Shown: positions 30,611 through 53,770 of the stretch, in pieces
How positions within the stretch are numbered: position 1 is the first letter of the stretch
Layout: every line of letters begins with the position of its first letter
Assembly (NCBI RefSeq): GCF_014705945.2
Contig: NZ_CP061538.1
Location: forward strand, 868,001 to 932,000
Length of the DNA stretch: 64,000 nt
Source: Rothia amarae
GTDB lineage: Bacteria; Actinomycetota; Actinomycetes; Actinomycetales; Micrococcaceae
Reading direction: 5' to 3'
The notes under the pieces: model-generated
What the model saw: the letters and a program-made list of their open reading frames with translations, nothing else
Told to the model about the DNA's origin: nothing
Databases searched by the model: none
Program-made: the position numbers and the translations under genes

Positions 30611-31738
30611 TTATAGTGACCCAAGCACACCGCGCGCATCAGATACTCCGCGACGCTCAATATACGAGTGTTTAGTGGTCTGCACGTCATCGTGTCCTAG
30701 CTGTAGAGCTGCGGCTTCTGCCCCTAGCTCTCGCTCAATAAGCGTGGCGACGGTTGCTCTGAGTATCTTCGGTGTGCATCCTGCGAATTCAGTCCCGCGT
30801 GCTTGGGCAAAATTCTCTTTCAGATTCCCATACTTGACCATACCCCCAGTGGAGGACGGGAAAACGTACTCACTGGTACGGGGGCGTACCGCCAGGATTT
30901 CGATAAGCCAGCCGGGGAGCATGACGGCGCGATTATTTTTCGTCTTAGTGTACGGTTGATACTTCGATGCCCCGTTGTTGGTTATAGCGGTAGATCGGAT
31001 AGTCACCATGCCCGCCTGGAAGTCTATATCTTCCCAGCGTAGGGAAATCGCTTCACCTACACGGCAACCTGTCCCGGCAAGAAAGTCTATAAGGTCTGGC
31101 ACGTAGGTTGCTGCTTTGTGGCGTGCCGGGTGCGTCTCATAGTAGTGGTGGATGTTGGCGCGTAGTCGTTTTAGCTGTTCGGGGGTGAGGGATTGTGGTG
31201 CTGTTTTTTCGCGCTGTATGGGCTTGGAGTGTTCGGCGGGGTTGGTGGGTAGCGCGTCGAGACGTACGGCTTCTGCGAGAATCATTTTGAGCATGGTTCT
31301 TAGTCTCATGGCGGTGCTCTTACCTCCCCGGCGCGTGTTCCCTGATTCTACGATTTCTAGGGCGTTGGTGAGTTGTTTTTCTACCCATGAGACGGTGATT
31401 TCGCGTAGGCGTATCTGCCCTACCGGGTTTATGTAATTACGGATGATGTTTTCTGAGATTCGGGCAGTGTTCTCAGATACCCCGCTCTTATATTCTTCGT
31501 ACCAGCGTTCGGTGAAGGCGGCGAGTGTCATGTCTGCGGTGGCTTGTTCAATGGGGCGGTAGGTTGCGGCTTTTTCTTTGAGTGCGTTGGTGGCGGCGGC
31601 TTTTGTTTTGCCGGTGGCTGTCATGTCGCGGCGTTTGCCGTTGTCGTCCCGGTAGTATGCGCGGGCTACCCACTTCCCGCTTGGTTTTTTGCGGGTGTTG
31701 ATTTCACCCAATGTGTTGAGGGGTAGTGGTGGGCGCAT
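30611..31738 (-). CDS. int: tyrosine-family phage integrase
   Basis: A 375-residue site-specific recombinase with an N-terminal arm-binding domain (KKPSGKWVARAYYRDDNGKR), a SAM-like core-binding domain and a C-terminal catalytic domain. Catalytic positions: Arg in GTGCRVGEAISLRWEDI; box II reads TPKILRATVAT, so the Arg is present but the usual His of HxxR is Lys; His in LQLGHDDV; nucleophile Tyr in HSYIERR. It lies next to the attachment site with the usual outward position. The Lys substitution occurs in some active integrases, so loss of activity should not be assumed. Confidence 0.93.
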   Translation of the reverse strand: MRPPLPLNTLGEINTRKKPSGKWVARAYYRDDNGKRRDMTATGKTKAAATNALKEKAATYRPIEQATADMTLAAFTERWYEEYKSGVSENTARISENIIRNYINPVGQIRLREITVSWVEKQLTNALEIVESGNTRRGGKSTAMRLRTMLKMILAEAVRLDALPTNPAEHSKPIQREKTAPQSLTPEQLKRLRANIHHYYETHPARHKAATYVPDLIDFLAGTGCRVGEAISLRWEDIDFQAGMVTIRSTAITNNGASKYQPYTKTKNNRAVMLPGWLIEILAVRPRTSEYVFPSSTGGMVKYGNLKENFAQARGTEFAGCTPKILRATVATLIERELGAEAAALQLGHDDVQTTKHSYIERRGVSDARGVLGSL

Positions 31739-48836: not shown

Positions 48837-48982
48837 AATGGATTCATTTTGCGTTCGTCATTGGTGCGGTCATCTGCGTAGGAGTGCATCATGCCTTACC
48901 GCAGGATAGTAAAAGCTCCTCAGCGTTCTTCTATTTAGGTTTAGGTTTTATCGTTCTTATGGCTGTTGGGAGCTTGCTATGA
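48833..48982 (+). CDS. small membrane protein (49 aa)
   Basis: 49 codons, two hydrophobic helices (IHFAFVIGAVICVGV and FFYLGLGFIVLMAVGS) around a short polar loop. ATGA overlaps on both sides. Confidence 0.55.
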   Translation: MKWIHFAFVIGAVICVGVHHALPQDSKSSSAFFYLGLGFIVLMAVGSLL

Positions 48983-49707
48983 CTTATTGCCGTCACTGCG
49001 GGGAACCCCAAGACTCCGTGTCCCTCTGCGGTAAATGCCTCATCAAAGTACGCGACCTCTGCGACCGGGCAGGCGAAGCACTCAAAGACCTGGAAGATGA
49101 GATAGCTAAGACCACGGCGAAAGCACCAACAGGTTCAGGCGGGGGTGGGGACAAGACTGTTATCAGTTTCCCCGCCCTTTCCGCTAAAGACAACCTGGTA
49201 CTGGCAGTGAAGGCTTTACAGTCGCGTGCCGGGGCAGACATGACCGGCAAACCATCTGACTTGAAAGCGAAAGCCTACGGTCTACAGAAACCCGGTAAAG
49301 ATACCGCTGGCGACCCGCTCCACTACCTAGTGAACGACCTCGCCACGGATCTACGCAAAGCACTCAGCATCATTGATGTACGTCAAGAGAAAGAGCTGCT
49401 AGGGCGGTGCTCCTGTGGTGAGCTAGTCAAGGCGTGGGCTGGTACGGAAATAGCGAAGTGCCCTCAATGCGGCAGGCAAGTGTCTAAGGGTGAAGCATCC
49501 GAACGATTGAATAGCCAGGTCATGGACGGTCTCAACGGGGCATGGCTCAAAGATGCAGACATGGTCATCGCGCTAGAACAATGCGAAATGCCCGTTAGTA
49601 TCAAAACCATCCAATCCTGGGTGAAAAGGAAACACCTAGTAAGGGATGGGCAGAATCGGACGTGCTTCAATGATGCTGTGCACTTAGCAGAAAGGACACG
49701 CCGATGA
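48979..49707 (+). CDS. zinc-ribbon and helix-turn-helix phage protein
   Basis: 242 residues. N-terminal ribbon CRHCGEPQDSVSLCGKC, helical middle, second ribbon CSCGELVKAW..CPQCGRQVSKG (about 145-170) and a C-terminal helix-turn-helix-like region (MPVSIKTIQSWVKRKHLV). This plan is seen in actinophage proteins of unknown role, possibly transcription regulators. It is the last gene before the strong promoter at 49718, so a late-gene activator or antiterminator role is conceivable. Confidence 0.6.
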   Translation: MTYCRHCGEPQDSVSLCGKCLIKVRDLCDRAGEALKDLEDEIAKTTAKAPTGSGGGGDKTVISFPALSAKDNLVLAVKALQSRAGADMTGKPSDLKAKAYGLQKPGKDTAGDPLHYLVNDLATDLRKALSIIDVRQEKELLGRCSCGELVKAWAGTEIAKCPQCGRQVSKGEASERLNSQVMDGLNGAWLKDADMVIALEQCEMPVSIKTIQSWVKRKHLVRDGQNRTCFNDAVHLAERTRR

Positions 49708-49717
49708 TGGTAACGAC

Positions 49718-49746
49718 TTGACCCCATTAAAGGGTGCAGGTATAGT
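49718..49746 (+). promoter_or_regulatory. strong sigma70-type promoter
   Basis: TTGACC (49718-49723), a 17-base spacer and TATAGT (49741-49746), the best promoter seen in the prophage. Predicted start near 49753. It opens the non-coding/late region. Confidence 0.75.
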
Positions 49747-49752
49747 ATACGT

Positions 49753-49816
49753 TATAGTGCTTGAAGTCTAGATAGAGAGCACTTGACCGGCTGGCGAGTC
49801 CGGTCATTTCTTGTTT
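49753..49816 (+). ncRNA. short double-hairpin RNA or promoter-proximal attenuator
   Basis: Directly after the promoter, AGTGCT (49756-49761) pairs with AGCACT (49778-49783), and the next base begins a second stem TGACCGG (49784-49790) with CCGGTCA (49800-49806), followed by TTTCTTGTTT. The result is a transcript of about 60 bases ending at an intrinsic terminator, or an attenuator to be overcome by antitermination. Confidence 0.6.
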
Positions 49817-49892
49817 AACGAGTGCGCATCCTTTCAAAGCTGGGTTTCGTTGGCATAGTATTTCCTTTCAAGTGGTTGTGTAGATGATTCAC

Positions 49893-49927
49893 CCCCGGTA
49901 ACTGTTCATCACGGTTACCGGGGCTTT
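49893..49927 (+). terminator. second terminator in the late leader
   Basis: CCCCGGTAAC (49893-49902) pairs perfectly with GTTACCGGGG (49914-49923), then CTTTCG. The T-run is short. Confidence 0.6.
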
Positions 49928-49946
49928 CGTCATTTAAGGGGTGAAC

Positions 49947-50138
49947 ATGGGAAACATCGACCCCGTAATAATCGCATGGATGAAACGCCGCGACCGCGTA
50001 AAAGAAGCCAACGACCGGGTAAACAGATTCAACACCGCACCAGGGCTAAAACAATTCACCGTCCCAGAGGACAAACCACTGGTTCACGGGAAAGCGGATC
50101 ATACTGCTTGGGAAGCTATCGGGAGGGTAAGCCGATGA
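49947..50138 (+). CDS. small hypothetical protein (63 aa)
   Basis: 63 residues from ATG 49947 (AAGGGGTG upstream). Basic helix IIAWMKRRDRVKEANDRVNR. Overlaps the next ORF by ATGA. Confidence 0.5.
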   Translation: MGNIDPVIIAWMKRRDRVKEANDRVNRFNTAPGLKQFTVPEDKPLVHGKADHTAWEAIGRVSR

Positions 50139-50356
50139 AAGTGATGCTAGAAGACGGGCGCGAACTTGAGCTCGCAGTGGACGACGGTGAAACCCTCACT
50201 GATGTTGTTGTTATCGGGCACGTCCAAAAAGATGGGTACTCAGGTATCACCTATGCCACTGCTGATAGTTTCGGTGATGGCGCATCAAACATTGTGGTCG
50301 CTGGAATGCTGGAATACGCGCGCGACGCTCAAAGGACGGCGGAAGATGTTGACTGA
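50135..50356 (+). CDS. small acidic hypothetical protein (73 aa)
   Basis: ATG 50135; 73 codons, MKVMLEDGRELELAVDDGE then a beta-rich core and an acidic C-terminal helix. Last ORF before the non-coding stretch. Confidence 0.5.
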   Translation: MKVMLEDGRELELAVDDGETLTDVVVIGHVQKDGYSGITYATADSFGDGASNIVVAGMLEYARDAQRTAEDVD

Positions 50357-50460
50357 TGAAGAACGCGAACTCTTGGACTGGTAACAAGACAGGCACACCC
50401 CGGTAATCCTATCCTCCGACTTCGTAGAGCCAGACCTCACGGACTGCGACTAAACAATTC

Positions 50461-50826
50461 CTCCATGGTGGTACCGAGGTTAATCACCCACCCGCTCAAT
50501 GGTAAGAGACGACACCAAATACCAGATAACTAAATAGCGCCGGCGTATTCGTACTCGCCGGGCGTAGCGCGTGGAAGAAGAAACCACCAGGTTCGTGACC
50601 TGGCACGCGCACAAGGTCTCATAGATAACAAAAGACATTGGGGACTATGAGACCCTAGCGTACCAACCTTGATGGGGGTCAAAGGACAGTGCGAGCATAT
50701 CTCTCATAGCTCAACAGGCAGAGCGCACGGCTGTTAACCGTGATGTCCTGGTTCGAACCCAGGTGAGAGAGCGTAACCCTCTGCTGGTACACCAGAAAGA
50801 TTGGGCTGGCTAAACCAACAGAGGGG
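50461..50826 (+). ncRNA. densely structured non-coding region around the phage tRNA
   Basis: No coding frame of size lies between 50357 and 50854. Successive helices: 50467-50471/50488-50492; 50540-50545/50556-50561; an acceptor/T-arm minihelix 50567-50610; 50615-50624/50645-50654 (10 bp perfect); 50667-50672/50679-50685; the tRNA 50700-50771; and a three-way junction closed by CCCTCTG (50777-50783)/CAGAGGG (50819-50825) with two inner hairpins. The order suggests one processed structured RNA. Limits are approximate. Degraded tRNA genes are the main alternative. Confidence 0.5.
50700..50771 (+). tRNA. tRNA-Asn (anticodon GTT), phage-encoded
   Basis: Acceptor 50700-50706 with 50764-50770 (7 bp), D stem 50709-50712/50721-50724, anticodon stem 50726-50730/50738-50742 with loop CTGTTAA, four-base variable loop, T stem 50747-50751/50759-50763 with loop TTCGAAC, discriminator G. 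CCA is not encoded. All stems pair cleanly, so it should be functional. Confidence 0.93.
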
Positions 50827-50854
50827 ACACAATCAACAAATGAATAGAGGTCGT

Positions 50855-50965
50855 ATGATGTATGAATACGAGAGCACTATTACATCTGCTATAGAACACA
50901 TATTCGAATGGTTCAGCGAGGCATCACAGCAAACACGGGACGACTTCGTTTTAGTGAATGATTAG
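50855..50965 (+). CDS. small acidic protein (36 aa)
   Basis: ATG 50855 (or 50840 in frame) after AGAGGTCGT; 36 codons, helical (ITSAIEHIFEWFSEASQQTR). Its stop sits in the ribosome site of the next gene. Confidence 0.45.
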   Translation: MMYEYESTITSAIEHIFEWFSEASQQTRDDFVLVND

Positions 50966-50976
50966 GAGGCAAAGAT

Positions 50977-51201
50977 ATGCCAGGTATCAGCAATGATTCA
51001 TACCAGCCTCCTAACCCGCTAGAGAACCTGATTGCTGCAATCAAATACTACGAGGAAACCACGCCCCCGCTACAACGTCGTATAGCGCAAGAGATACTGA
51101 AGATCAGCGAAGAGAACCACCAAGCAGGCATCGACTACATCAGCGATGCACAAGGGTTAGCACTCATCGAACGCGCACGACAGGCAGAGGCAGAAGCATG
51201 A
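50977..51201 (+). CDS. hypothetical helical phage protein
   Basis: 74 residues after TAGGAGGCAAAG. Helical (LENLIAAIKYYEETTPPLQ). Overlaps the next ORF by ATGA. Confidence 0.55.
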   Translation: MPGISNDSYQPPNPLENLIAAIKYYEETTPPLQRRIAQEILKISEENHQAGIDYISDAQGLALIERARQAEAEA

Positions 51202-51335
51202 TACAGCAAGCCAATAAAGGTGAGTACATCATCCACCCTAGTATCAAAGACACCGCAGTCCTTGATGCAATCAATGCCCACGAGATAGCACATGCTACAC
51301 AAGATGGGTATGCACAAGGCGGGCTATCAAGGTAG
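51198..51335 (+). CDS. small hypothetical protein (45 aa)
   Basis: ATG 51198, 45 codons, including INAHEIAHATQDGYAQGG. The HEIAH string resembles a zinc-protease HExxH, but the frame is too short for a protease domain. Confidence 0.45.
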   Translation: MIQQANKGEYIIHPSIKDTAVLDAINAHEIAHATQDGYAQGGLSR

Positions 51336-51343
51336 GCGACCCT

Positions 51344-51637
51344 ATGCCAGCACGCACGTCAAACAAACACTGGCGCAAGTCACGCCACCAAGCAATCAAA
51401 CAGGCAATACAAGAAGATAACTTCACCTGCCACTACTGCAACACATGGCTAAGGCAAGAACCAGGCTACCCCAACAGTGTCGAATACGACCACGTAACAG
51501 CATGGTCAAAAGTAGGCGACAACACAGACAAAGTCCTATCATGCCGAACCTGCAACCGATCCAAAGGAAACAGGACAGCACCAAAAGCCTACACAGTAGC
51601 AAAAATCAAACCACTCAAAGTCTCCCGACAATGGTAA
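51344..51637 (+). CDS. HNH endonuclease of the packaging module
   Basis: 97 residues. CHYCNTWLRQEPGYPNSVEYDHVTAW carries the CxxC and catalytic DH. KVLSCRTCNRSKGNRTAP gives the second CxxC and N. HNH proteins just upstream of terminase help cleave cos ends in many long-tailed phages. The coding strand is A/C-rich, unlike the terminase genes. Confidence 0.88.
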   Translation: MPARTSNKHWRKSRHQAIKQAIQEDNFTCHYCNTWLRQEPGYPNSVEYDHVTAWSKVGDNTDKVLSCRTCNRSKGNRTAPKAYTVAKIKPLKVSRQW

Positions 51638-51718
51638 ACCCACACACAGCCATATAAGGGACTAAAAACCATCCAAGGCACAAACCACGACACAAGCAAA
51701 AACAAACGCCTTAGAACA

Positions 51719-51745
51719 ACCCTGGGGAGCATACCCTGGGTGCAT
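51719..51745. repeat. imperfect tandem repeat, candidate packaging (cos/pac) element
   Basis: ACCCTGGGGAGCAT (51719-51732) followed directly by ACCCTGGGTGCAT (51733-51745), within the 220-base gap between HNH and small terminase. A C-run (TTATCCCCCCC) follows near 51776. Position and repeats suit a terminase binding or cutting site. Confidence 0.4.
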
Positions 51746-51857
51746 AACTGAACGGTTGCCTCCACCAGGTCTAGTTATCCCCCCCCTGAGGTTTAAATAA
51801 TTTGAGCCGTATTTGTTTTGCCTAGTCAAACGCATATTTTAGTTTTTGGGGGTTCCT

Positions 51858-52250
51858 ATGGGGTTCGTTGCTGGTCTTGGTGAGCGTGGGCAGGAGATTT
51901 GGGAATCTTTGGAGTCTAATGACCCAGTGCGTAACGCGCTTGCTTTGGAGCTGGCTAGAACTGCTGATCGTCTTGATGAGCTTGACAATATTATCCAGGG
52001 CAAGGGTGTCTTGGAGTTGATGCAGTTCCGTGTTGATGATTTGAAGCTCAACGATGAGGTTGAGACTGTCGTGATTAATTTGAAGTTTCAGAGTGTTTTA
52101 TCTGAGGCGAGGCAACAGCAGGTTGCTATGACTCAGATTGTGCAGAAGTTGGCTGCTGGTGGGGAAGATGCGAGGCGTTCGCCTGGTTCTTTGCCGGAGA
52201 ATGTCACCCCGCTGGCGCTGTTGCAGGAAAAGATGAGTAAGAGAGCTTAG
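51858..52250 (+). CDS. terminase small subunit
   Basis: 130 residues from ATG 51858 (GGGGG upstream). Helical: ARTADRLDELDNIIQGKG and QVAMTQIVQKLAAGGEDARR. The position directly before the large terminase and the size support the call; sequence similarity is only suggestive. It should bind the packaging site. Confidence 0.7.
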   Translation: MGFVAGLGERGQEIWESLESNDPVRNALALELARTADRLDELDNIIQGKGVLELMQFRVDDLKLNDEVETVVINLKFQSVLSEARQQQVAMTQIVQKLAAGGEDARRSPGSLPENVTPLALLQEKMSKRA

Positions 52251-52261
52251 GTGGTGGTTCG

Positions 52262-53770
52262 GTGCAGGGTAATCAGACTCCGCGTTTTAATACTGCGCCG
52301 GTTCCTGCTGGGTATTCGACTGAGGATGCTGATCTTGCTATCGAGTTCCTTCGCGGTCTTGAATATTTCCCTGATGAATGGCAGGAGACCGTTGTGCGGG
52401 CTTGGTTGCGTCGTGATCGTGAGGGCGCTTGGTGTGCTAATACATGGGGTGTGAGTGCTGCTCGTCAGAATGGCAAGAATGGCACTTTGGAAATCGTGGA
52501 AGTTTATCTTATGGTTGCGCTGGGGTTGAAGATTCTTCATACTGCCCAGTTGTTGCCTACTGCTAAGAAGTCTTTTAAGCGGTTGCTTAATTTTTTTGGG
52601 CAGAAGGTTGATGACCCTAATGCGCGGTTTCCTGAGTTGAACGCGATGGTCACTGAAGTTCGCCGCACGAATGGCCAGGAAGCCATTGTGTTGAATAATG
52701 GTGGTCTTATTGAGGTGTCGGCGCGTTCTGCCGCTGCTGGTCGTGGTGCTTCTTATGATGTTCTCGTTGTTGATGAGGCTCAGGAGTACGAGACGGAGCA
52801 GCAGGAGGCTCTAGAGCCAACTATTTCTGCTTCTCCATCTGGCGACCCTGTGACTATTTATTTGGGCACTCCTCCTGCTGAGGTGGGGGAGCGTGGCGCT
52901 CCATTTATGCGTATTCGTAATGCTGCGGTTACTGGTCAGGATAAGCATTCAGCTTGGGTTGAGTTTTCTGCTTCTGGTGACGTGGACAAGATGAGTGAGT
53001 CTGAGCTTACTGTTTTTGTGGCAGATCGTAAGAATTGGGCAGATGCTAATCCTGCTCTTGGTGGGCGTTTGAAGCTGAGGACGGTTGAGACTGAGCATTC
53101 GCGTTGGTCGGCTCGTTCTTTTGCTCGTGAGCGTTTGAACATGTTTCCTTCCCCTAAAGGAAACGTGACTGCGGCGTTTGATTTTGGGGCGTGGGAGTCT
53201 CGTGCTGTTGCTGATGCGCCTGATGGTGACCCGTTGTGTTTTGCGTTGGATATGAATCCTGAGCGTACGCGGGTTTCTATCGCGGTGTGTGTTGGTGACC
53301 CTGATGGGGTTAGGCATGTGGAGTTGGCGGCTGATTCTGCGTTTAGTGAGCAGGGTGTTTCTGCTCTTGTGGATTGGTTGTGGGAGCGTTGTAAGCGTCG
53401 TGTGCCTGTTGTGGTGGATGCTTTTTCTGGTGCTCGTGCGTTGCTGGAGGTTCCTTTGCGTAATCGTGGTGTGCAGGTGCATGTTCTTTCTTCTGCTGAG
53501 CTTGTTCAGGCTTATTCGATGATGAAGTTCGCTGTTGAGGTTGAGGGGAATATTTCGCATTTTGATCAGGAGCAGTTGAATCTTTCTGTTGAGGGCGCGG
53601 TGCGTGTTCCTTTGTCTCGTCATTCGTCTGAGTTTAAGGTGGGGCGTTCGTCGTCTGATGTTCAGCTTGCGCCTGTGTTGGCGGTGATGGGTGCTTTTTA
53701 TGGTGGTTCTAAGTTTGGTCGGAGGCGGCGTTCTGGTGAGCGTCGTTCTCGTGGCGCGATTGTTGGGTAG
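52262..53770 (+). CDS. terminase large subunit
   Basis: A 502-residue DNA packaging motor. The ATPase domain includes WGVSAARQNGKNGTLEIV (Walker A-like) and YDVLVVDEAQEYETEQQ (Walker B with catalytic Glu). The nuclease domain carries FALDMNPERTRVSIAVC and VPVVVDAFSG with the metal Asp residues. GTG start. Base use is G/T-rich. Confidence 0.93.
   Translation: MQGNQTPRFNTAPVPAGYSTEDADLAIEFLRGLEYFPDEWQETVVRAWLRRDREGAWCANTWGVSAARQNGKNGTLEIVEVYLMVALGLKILHTAQLLPTAKKSFKRLLNFFGQKVDDPNARFPELNAMVTEVRRTNGQEAIVLNNGGLIEVSARSAAAGRGASYDVLVVDEAQEYETEQQEALEPTISASPSGDPVTIYLGTPPAEVGERGAPFMRIRNAAVTGQDKHSAWVEFSASGDVDKMSESELTVFVADRKNWADANPALGGRLKLRTVETEHSRWSARSFARERLNMFPSPKGNVTAAFDFGAWESRAVADAPDGDPLCFALDMNPERTRVSIAVCVGDPDGVRHVELAADSAFSEQGVSALVDWLWERCKRRVPVVVDAFSGARALLEVPLRNRGVQVHVLSSAELVQAYSMMKFAVEVEGNISHFDQEQLNLSVEGAVRVPLSRHSSEFKVGRSSSDVQLAPVLAVMGAFYGGSKFGRRRRSGERRSRGAIVG

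What the first reader, a model, noticed from the sequence alone, without database searches (positions are those of the whole stretch)
50385..50855. Structured non-coding element with an embedded tRNA
A coding-free stretch of nearly 470 bases in a gene-dense phage contains at least six helices, one of 10 perfect base pairs, a complete tRNA-Asn and a three-way junction. Large ornate phage RNAs (GOLLD, ROOL) also lie near, or hold, tRNAs in prophages, but this element is shorter and I cannot match it by eye, so it may be a new RNA class.
Basis: partly seen in the sequence, partly recalled or inferred. Interest (0 to 1): 0.75.

Follow-up and report, generated by a model that had tools for sequence, protein, structure and literature searches.

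The report
Phage tRNA beside tRNA remnants
The stretch is a normal asparagine tRNA gene of a dormant bacterial virus, sitting in an untranslated part of the virus genome next to what looks like the leftovers of another tRNA gene; it is probably not a new RNA machine, but some related viruses carry a so far undescribed, clearly conserved RNA at the same spot.

Summary
Observation partly confirmed: 50385-50855 has no convincing gene, a perfect 10-bp hairpin (50615-50654) and a good tRNA-Asn (50700-50772, 65.4 bits). The three-way junction is not the minimum-energy fold, and the long-range helix tying the 5' hairpins together is unexceptional (63 of 500 shuffles do as well). Rfam finds only the tRNA; GOLLD and ROOL are absent. 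No homologue of the non-tRNA part was found, so covariation is untestable. One hairpin (50567-50610) is a perfect acceptor + T-arm minihelix lacking D and anticodon arms, a pattern expected about 0.1 times per strand in 64 kb: probably a tRNA remnant. Best reading: a phage tRNA-Asn with decayed tRNA in the untranslated leader between a phrog_908 gene and HNH/TerS/TerL. Related prophages have other tRNAs there, and some a conserved structured RNA ("E3", about 140 nt, strong covariation, no Rfam match), also found in 59 IMG/VR stretches and in Arthrobacter, Rhodococcus, Stenotrophomonas and, weakly, Serratia phages. E3 is not in the window. The window element is ordinary; E3 is the real novelty nearby.

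The parts
48979..49707 (+). phrog_908 gene (zinc-ribbon-like; helix-turn-helix by eye; unknown function); regulator-like gene before the leader
   Evidence: PHROGs hit phrog_908, E 2.9e-12; weak zinc-ribbon hits in Pfam below cut-off. phrog_908 or phrog_1467 lies at the same place in 8 of 8 related loci scanned and in L031.
49718..49746 (+). sigma-70-like promoter TTGACC-17-TATAGT
   Evidence: Consensus scan; on its own not above chance (1 found, 2.6 expected in shuffles). A promoter-like site follows phrog_908 in 18 of 30 loci versus 51 of 546 control ORF ends (Fisher p 8.6e-11).
49784..49806 (+). terminator-like hairpin followed by TTTCTTGTTT
   Evidence: Terminator-like site after phrog_908 in 9 of 30 loci versus 67 of 546 controls (p 0.011).
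49893..49923 (+). second hairpin CCCCGGTAACTGT / ACGGTTACCGGGG
   Evidence: Inverted repeat I4, 92% complementary.
50537..50565 (+). hairpin W-b, 9 pairs; a D-arm-like stretch GCTCAATGGTAAGAG lies upstream of it (by eye)
   Evidence: RNAfold; 50480-50575 z -1.8, 18 of 400 shuffles as stable. The D-arm likeness is by eye only.
50567..50610 (+). W-c: tRNA minihelix, 7-bp acceptor GCGCGTG/CACGCGC plus 5-bp T-arm with 7-nt loop TTCGTGA; 13 nt where D and anticodon arms should be
   Evidence: Pattern scan: 3 matches in 64 kb on both strands (this, the tRNA-Asn, one minus-strand match with a 5-nt gap); 1 match in 10 random one-strand sequences of the same dinucleotide make-up. Only match off an ARAGORN tRNA with a gap of 1-34 nt in 1.88 Mb (both strands counted) of the window and related loci.
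50615..50654 (+). W-d: 10-bp perfect hairpin; its TCTCATAG (50617-50624) also occurs at the 5' end of the tRNA-Asn (50702-50709)
   Evidence: z -4.84, 0 of 400 shuffles. Aligned by start, 11 of 17 bases agree with the tRNA 5' end. Tentative tRNA remnant.
50700..50772 (+). tRNA-Asn (GTT), 3' CCA not encoded
   Evidence: ARAGORN; Rfam RF00005 65.4 bits, gathering 29. Lack of CCA seen in the sequence.
50777..50825 (+). W-e: hairpin closed by exactly 7 bp, CCCTCTG/CAGAGGG
   Evidence: RNAfold; 50773-50835 z -3.42, 1 of 400 shuffles (window chosen after the fold).
51344..51637 (+). HNH endonuclease gene downstream of the leader
   Evidence: Pfam HNH E 2.5e-5, HNH_4 E 2e-5, both above cut-off.
51846..53770 (+). 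terminase small (51846-52250) and large (52262-53770) subunit genes
   Evidence: phrog_1496 E 4.4e-15; phrog_9 E 3.2e-45.

Best explanation
A prophage carries one intact tRNA-Asn gene inside a roughly 470-nt untranslated stretch between its early genes (ending with a phrog_908 gene and two small ORFs) and its packaging genes. The transcript is expected to start at a promoter behind phrog_908 (inferred), run through hairpins and the tRNA towards HNH, TerS and TerL, and be cut by host tRNA-processing enzymes to release a tRNA-Asn (inferred). The other hairpins are at least partly debris of former tRNA genes: W-c keeps a perfect acceptor stem and T-arm but has lost the D and anticodon arms and the usual T-loop A58 (consensus recalled); W-d, W-b and W-e may be more decayed (inferred). 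The tRNA adds to host tRNA-Asn late in growth, or replaces it if a host defence nuclease cuts it (inferred from work on other phages). Shown: tRNA, W-c minihelix, gene order, changing tRNAs at the same spot in relatives. Not shown: transcription, processing, function.
For: tRNA-Asn 65.4 bits. W-c pattern: 3 matches in 64 kb on both strands, about 0.1 per strand expected, and it lies 90 nt from the tRNA. 7 of 16 loci with related terminase have tRNAs of various kinds in the scanned stretch (Thr, Trp, Leu, Asn; L032 and L038 show the same coordinates and are probably one phage; one further terminase locus, L048, was not extended or scanned). 8 of 30 phrog_908 loci, the window included, have an ARAGORN tRNA within 1.5 kb, all downstream on the same strand, none upstream (two are calls without a normal anticodon). 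A genome of the same genus has phrog_908, then a promoter-like sequence and a terminator-like hairpin (read by eye), then a tRNA-Thr. Other phages in the set also hold imperfect tRNA-like genes. A host tRNA-Asn, found among the 30 of 50 tRNA hits held as loci, differs in its stems but has the same anticodon loop CTGTTAA. Phage tRNAs as answers to tRNA-cutting defences: PMC11555353 (passages seen).
Against: Rfam's tRNA model finds no second hit in 50200-51000 even at E up to 5, so W-b, W-c, W-d and W-e are not recognisable tRNAs by that model; only W-c passes a test, and that test was designed after seeing the hairpin. W-d alone and W-e alone are more stable than all or nearly all shuffles, which decay does not explain. 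The window promoter is no better than the scan's chance level.
Confidence: 0.62

Rival explanations
1. One lineage-specific structured RNA: a closing helix (50460-50475 with 50660-50679) gathers W-b, W-c and W-d into a multi-branch domain of about 225 nt, followed by tRNA-Asn and W-e; it works as a unit, like a small ornate RNA.
For: The MFE fold shows it; 50455-50682 has z -3.2, 2 of 400 shuffles as stable (bounds chosen after the fold). ROOL and GOLLD often lie near tRNA islands (PMC12286853, passages).
Against: The closing helix is matched by 358 of 21254 placements and by 63 of 500 shuffles; without the downstream part the 5' piece folds differently; island windows are not exceptional in the window; no homologue found.
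Confidence: 0.12
2. The minihelix hairpins are kept on purpose: acceptor-T-arm minihelices are minimal substrates for RNase P-type processing (recalled) and cut the long leader around the tRNA, or act as decoys for tRNA-binding enzymes.
For: W-c is a perfect minihelix with both helices intact although its D and anticodon arms are gone; tRNA-like genes with unusual middles recur in related islands (L059, L063, L064, L081, L117, L122, L158), one of them a tmRNA shortened to 83 nt (L059).
Against: No other locus in the 1.88 Mb scanned has a minihelix with so short a gap, apart from two plain hairpins with gap 0; the T-loop TTCGTGA lacks the usual A at position 58 (recalled consensus).
Confidence: 0.15
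3. A strongly diverged relative of E3 or of another leader RNA of these phages, serving the same unknown role in the untranslated late leader (for example keeping RNA polymerase going).
For: Comparable place downstream of a phrog_908/1467 gene as E3 in L036, L037, L032/L038 and L062.
Against: E3 covariance model: best window score 5.8 bits, E 0.21 in 3 kb with filters off; none at E up to 1 over the whole window with default filters. The exact E2 core motif is also absent (through locus L181; + strand of the whole window).
Confidence: 0.07

Closest known systems
Phage-borne tRNA genes and tRNA arrays
   Same: Isolated tRNA gene in a phage genome, isoacceptor varies between related phages, a remnant nearby.
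   Different: Only one intact tRNA here; the remnant W-c has lost D and anticodon arms completely.
GOLLD and ROOL RNAs
   Same: Non-coding phage or prophage RNAs often near tRNA islands (PMC12286853, passages).
   Different: No Rfam match here; the stretch is about 470 nt with a tRNA inside, and no conserved fold could be shown.
E3 RNA of Arthrobacter and other phages
   Same: At this locus in some related prophages, on the same strand as nearby tRNAs.
   Different: Window lacks any significant score to the E3 model.
Lambda Q - pR' - tR' late-gene switch
   Same: Regulator-like gene, promoter, early terminator, then packaging genes, in that order.
   Different: Resemblance in gene order only, recalled; no homology to Q shown, no transcription data; terminator enrichment is weak (9 of 30 versus 67 of 546).

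Membership tests
tRNA (RF00005) | Scores above the Rfam gathering score over the full model | tested here: met
   50700-50771, 65.4 bits against 29, model 1-71.
tRNA (RF00005) | Further tRNAs in the stretch | tested here: not met
   No second tRNA hit up to E 5 in 50200-51000; W-c has acceptor and T-arm only.
GOLLD / ROOL | Match to the Rfam covariance models | tested here: not met
   Scan of all 4227 Rfam 15 families, gathering threshold over the window and E up to 5 over 50200-51000: no match. That GOLLD and ROOL profiles are in Rfam: PMC12286853 (passage).
GOLLD / ROOL | Conserved, covarying large fold | tested here: inconclusive
   No homologues of the non-tRNA part found, so covariation cannot be measured.
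   R1 best 5.8 bits, E 0.21 in 49000-52000 with filters off; no match at E up to 1 in the whole window.
Q-type late antitermination leader | Regulator gene, promoter and early terminator in that order | tested here: inconclusive
   All three found in the window; promoter after phrog_908 enriched (18 of 30), terminator weakly (9 of 30), both in order in 3 of 30 versus 3 of 546.
Q-type late antitermination leader | Regulator lets RNA polymerase pass the terminator | not testable with these tools
   Needs transcription assays.

The most novel reading that the evidence does not exclude
The untranslated stretch behind phrog_908 is a dedicated RNA locus of actinophages in which unrelated structured RNAs (E3, E2, tRNAs, tRNA-like minihelices) are swapped while the place stays fixed, all serving one job on the late transcript, such as protecting it from early termination or cutting it; the window carries a lineage-specific set including a working minihelix.
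Probability: 0.15. Interest if true: 0.75.

Novelty: new member of a known kind. Interest (0 to 1): 0.38.

Why it matters
By itself the element shows a phage tRNA gene beside what looks like a decaying neighbour. Its value is as a pointer: the same locus in some relatives carries a conserved RNA family with strong covariation and no Rfam match, found in phages of hosts as far apart as Arthrobacter, Rhodococcus and Stenotrophomonas (and weakly a Serratia jumbo phage), in about a third of the IMG/VR copies close to a tRNA. If E3 is made during infection it is a new phage RNA with a testable function, and phrog_908 becomes a candidate late-gene regulator.

Tried and rejected
GOLLD, ROOL and the other Rfam families: only tRNA reaches a threshold. 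A four-way-junction RNA closed by a long-range helix: drawn from the MFE fold, noted as a lead, then dropped because 358 of 21254 placements and 63 of 500 shuffles do as well. E3 membership of the window: dropped; a 5.3-bit partial alignment at 50645-50709 is chance level. Neighbouring genes as bait: the 74-aa gene 50977-51201 had no relative in 247 other genomes; the phrog_908 gene and the gene 50135-50356 found none in IMG/VR. A structure prediction of phrog_908 was not run because the alignment of six was poor. My first terminator scanners were stricter (2 of 30) and were loosened after seeing the sequences. For one search, ORFs picked in L050 and L055 were left out as spurious. My notebook says E3 is always beside phage tRNAs; one search shows that is wrong. 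I had guessed a closer likeness of W-d to the tRNA 5' end; one search counts 11 of 17. Model R2 (sequence only) was built and not used.

Full report
WHERE IT IS. The window lies in a 2.48-Mb genome (G000:C1:868001-932000). An integrase-like ORF (30611-31738, minus, listed, named by eye) and HNH, TerS and TerL genes mark a prophage. The finding lies between small early genes and the packaging genes.

OBSERVATION. No + strand ORF of 40 aa or more lies inside 50385-50800. tRNA-Asn(GTT) 50700-50772 is confirmed. The 10-bp perfect hairpin is 50615-50654 and is more stable than all 400 shuffles. The stretch as a whole is only mildly structured: z -2.0, 13 of 400 shuffles as stable; its 150-nt windows starting at 50326, 50401, 50476, 50551, 50626, 50701 and 50776 rank 852, 842, 155, 70, 320, 85 and 121 of 852. 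The minus strand folds with lower z (-4.3), but the tRNA is on the plus strand. The three-way junction at 50777-50825 is not the MFE fold. The long-range helix that would join the 5' hairpins is unexceptional: 358 of 21254 placements over the window are as stable, without correction for composition, and 63 of 500 dinucleotide shuffles of 50385-50699 hold as good a one. A narrower domain, 50455-50682, does beat 398 of 400 shuffles, but its bounds were chosen after the fold and it contains W-d, which alone beats all.

NOT A KNOWN LARGE RNA. All 4227 Rfam families were scanned; only tRNA reaches its threshold. At E up to 5 the only other entry is a weak minus-strand match over the tRNA, far below its gathering score.

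NO HOMOLOGUE. blastn of 50356-50870 in 50,697 phage records hit 333; the 20 rows shown all lie within the tRNA. The tRNA-free 315 bases hit none. In 297 relatives 49 matched, own genome included; apart from the own copy the rows cover query positions 330-424 at most, around the tRNA. Two exact patterns found nothing in IMG/VR. The tools say that records very near the window may be left out. Covariation in the element therefore cannot be tested.

A tRNA REMNANT. I asked for a 7-bp acceptor, a gap of 5-74 nt, a 5-bp T-arm with a 7-nt loop, and the acceptor's other strand directly after it, Watson-Crick pairs only. In 64 kb on both strands there are three: the tRNA-Asn, 50567-50610, and one minus-strand match with a 5-nt gap; ten random one-strand sequences of the same dinucleotide make-up gave one in all. 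50567-50610 also has the T-loop start TTCG. In 1.88 Mb (both strands counted) of the window and related loci, allowing one G-T pair, gaps from 0 and asking for a TTC loop, 95 distinct matches appeared, 81 of them on ARAGORN tRNAs; of the other 14, two are plain hairpins with gap 0 and only 50567-50610 has a gap of 1-34 nt. The pattern was chosen after seeing the hairpin, so the chance estimate is optimistic. W-d shares TCTCATAG with the tRNA 5' end; that word occurs 4 times in the window where 1.74 are expected, and 12 of 100 shuffles reach 4, though three of the four lie within 93 bases; 11 of the first 17 bases agree. W-b and W-e show no tRNA signal that I could test.

THE LOCUS. The gene 48979-49707 is phrog_908 (E 2.9e-12), of unknown function; two small ORFs (49947-50138, 50135-50356) without family hits separate it from the element. 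phrog_908 occurs in 42 of 245 family genomes; 30 loci were held. A promoter-like site follows it in 18 of 30 loci against 51 of 546 control ORF ends; the controls are ORFs in all frames, some of them spurious. Terminator-like hairpins: 9 of 30 against 67 of 546; both in order: 3 of 30 against 3 of 546. ARAGORN tRNAs lie within 1.5 kb downstream in 8 of 30, none upstream. In 8 of 8 related loci scanned, and in L031, the gene before the leader is phrog_908 or phrog_1467. Among 16 loci with related terminase, 7 have tRNAs. This order recalls lambda Q, pR' and tR' (recalled; Q papers seen in a search listing only), but that is an analogy.

E3, A CONSERVED RNA AT THE SAME LOCUS IN SOME RELATIVES. 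Reading the leaders of L036, L037 and L038 I saw a shared 3' motif. It hits 59 IMG/VR stretches (some look like the same phage held twice) and Arthrobacter, Rhodococcus and Stenotrophomonas phage records; a Serratia jumbo phage matches weakly (27 bases, E 0.2; 30.4 bits with the model). Of 60 distinct copies, 45 fell into class A, 9 into class B and 6 were left out. 42 of the 45 were aligned, near-duplicates dropped. P2 is paired in 92.5% of cells with two-sided changes in 6 of 6 pairs, P3 in 92.9% with 5 of 8; covariation score 0.373 against 0.168 in shuffles (0 of 500 as high) and at most 0.097 when slid. The possible helix P4 and pseudoknot are weaker (56 and 63%). P1 was used to cut the sequences, so its count is biased; tested apart, an exact 7-nt partner lies 75-130 nt upstream in 43 of 60 copies against 92 of 3000 shuffled words. 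Letters of the 3' motif are fixed by the search pattern. Rfam shows nothing over E3 on its strand: L037 up to E 10 (where two weak minus-strand matches overlap it), L083 up to E 5, gathering scans. 18 of 59 copies lie within 500 nt of a tRNA, all 18 on the same strand, against 108 of 1180 random places; 39 of 59 stretches have no tRNA found (E3 bounds approximate). With model R1, 5 of 197 family genomes have it at E up to 0.01, three of them strongly. The window has none.

LITERATURE. Nine searches listed no title or abstract start that points to E3; the 12-letter start of its motif occurs in four papers on unrelated subjects, not opened. Only open-licence papers are held. PMC11555353 and PMC12286853 were seen as passages; all others as listings.

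VERDICT. The window element is a phage tRNA-Asn gene with probably at least one tRNA remnant in an untranslated leader.

Noticed in passing
L037:4291-4438, L032:3681-3817, L057:329-472, L058:3999-4155, L059:3999-4139, L083:6598-6735 (-), and L066-L124: E3: conserved RNA of about 140 nt (P1, P2, P3 and a 3' hairpin with the motif AAGAACGAGGCG..G.Y.CRCGCCTACTCC), strong covariation, no Rfam match, in 18 of 59 IMG/VR stretches within 500 nt of a tRNA, in phages of several bacterial groups.
   Followed up: partly
L059:4186-4268; also L081:3415-3492 (-) and L064:1975-2059: Very short tmRNA-like genes without room for a messenger part: L059 matches Rfam tmRNA at 61.8 bits in 83 nt; the other two look similar by eye, and L064 gave no tmRNA match at the gathering threshold. 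Possible decoys of trans-translation.
   Followed up: partly
L032:3827-3896, L033:4699-4768, L052:4297-4366 (-), L062:1544-1613, L070:2186-2255, L098:2137-2206 (-): E2: a second short conserved hairpin, core like CCCCTGAYCAACAAACATGCGCGAGCAGGG with a varying outer stem, in leaders of related phages.
   Followed up: partly
window 48979-49806 and L152-L181: phrog_908 (unknown function) is followed by a promoter-like site far more often than other ORF ends (18 of 30 versus 51 of 546): candidate late-gene regulator.
   Followed up: partly
L058:3917-3995: tRNA-like gene with a four-base anticodon call (cgga) by ARAGORN next to E3.
   Followed up: no
L063:1326-1409: tRNA-like gene next to E3, Rfam tRNA 36.5 bits, not called by ARAGORN.
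   Followed up: no
L064:1366-1529 (Serratia jumbo phage): An E3-like hit of 30.4 bits whose inner domain looks by eye like a small tRNA, as if a tRNA were grafted into the E3 scaffold.
   Followed up: no
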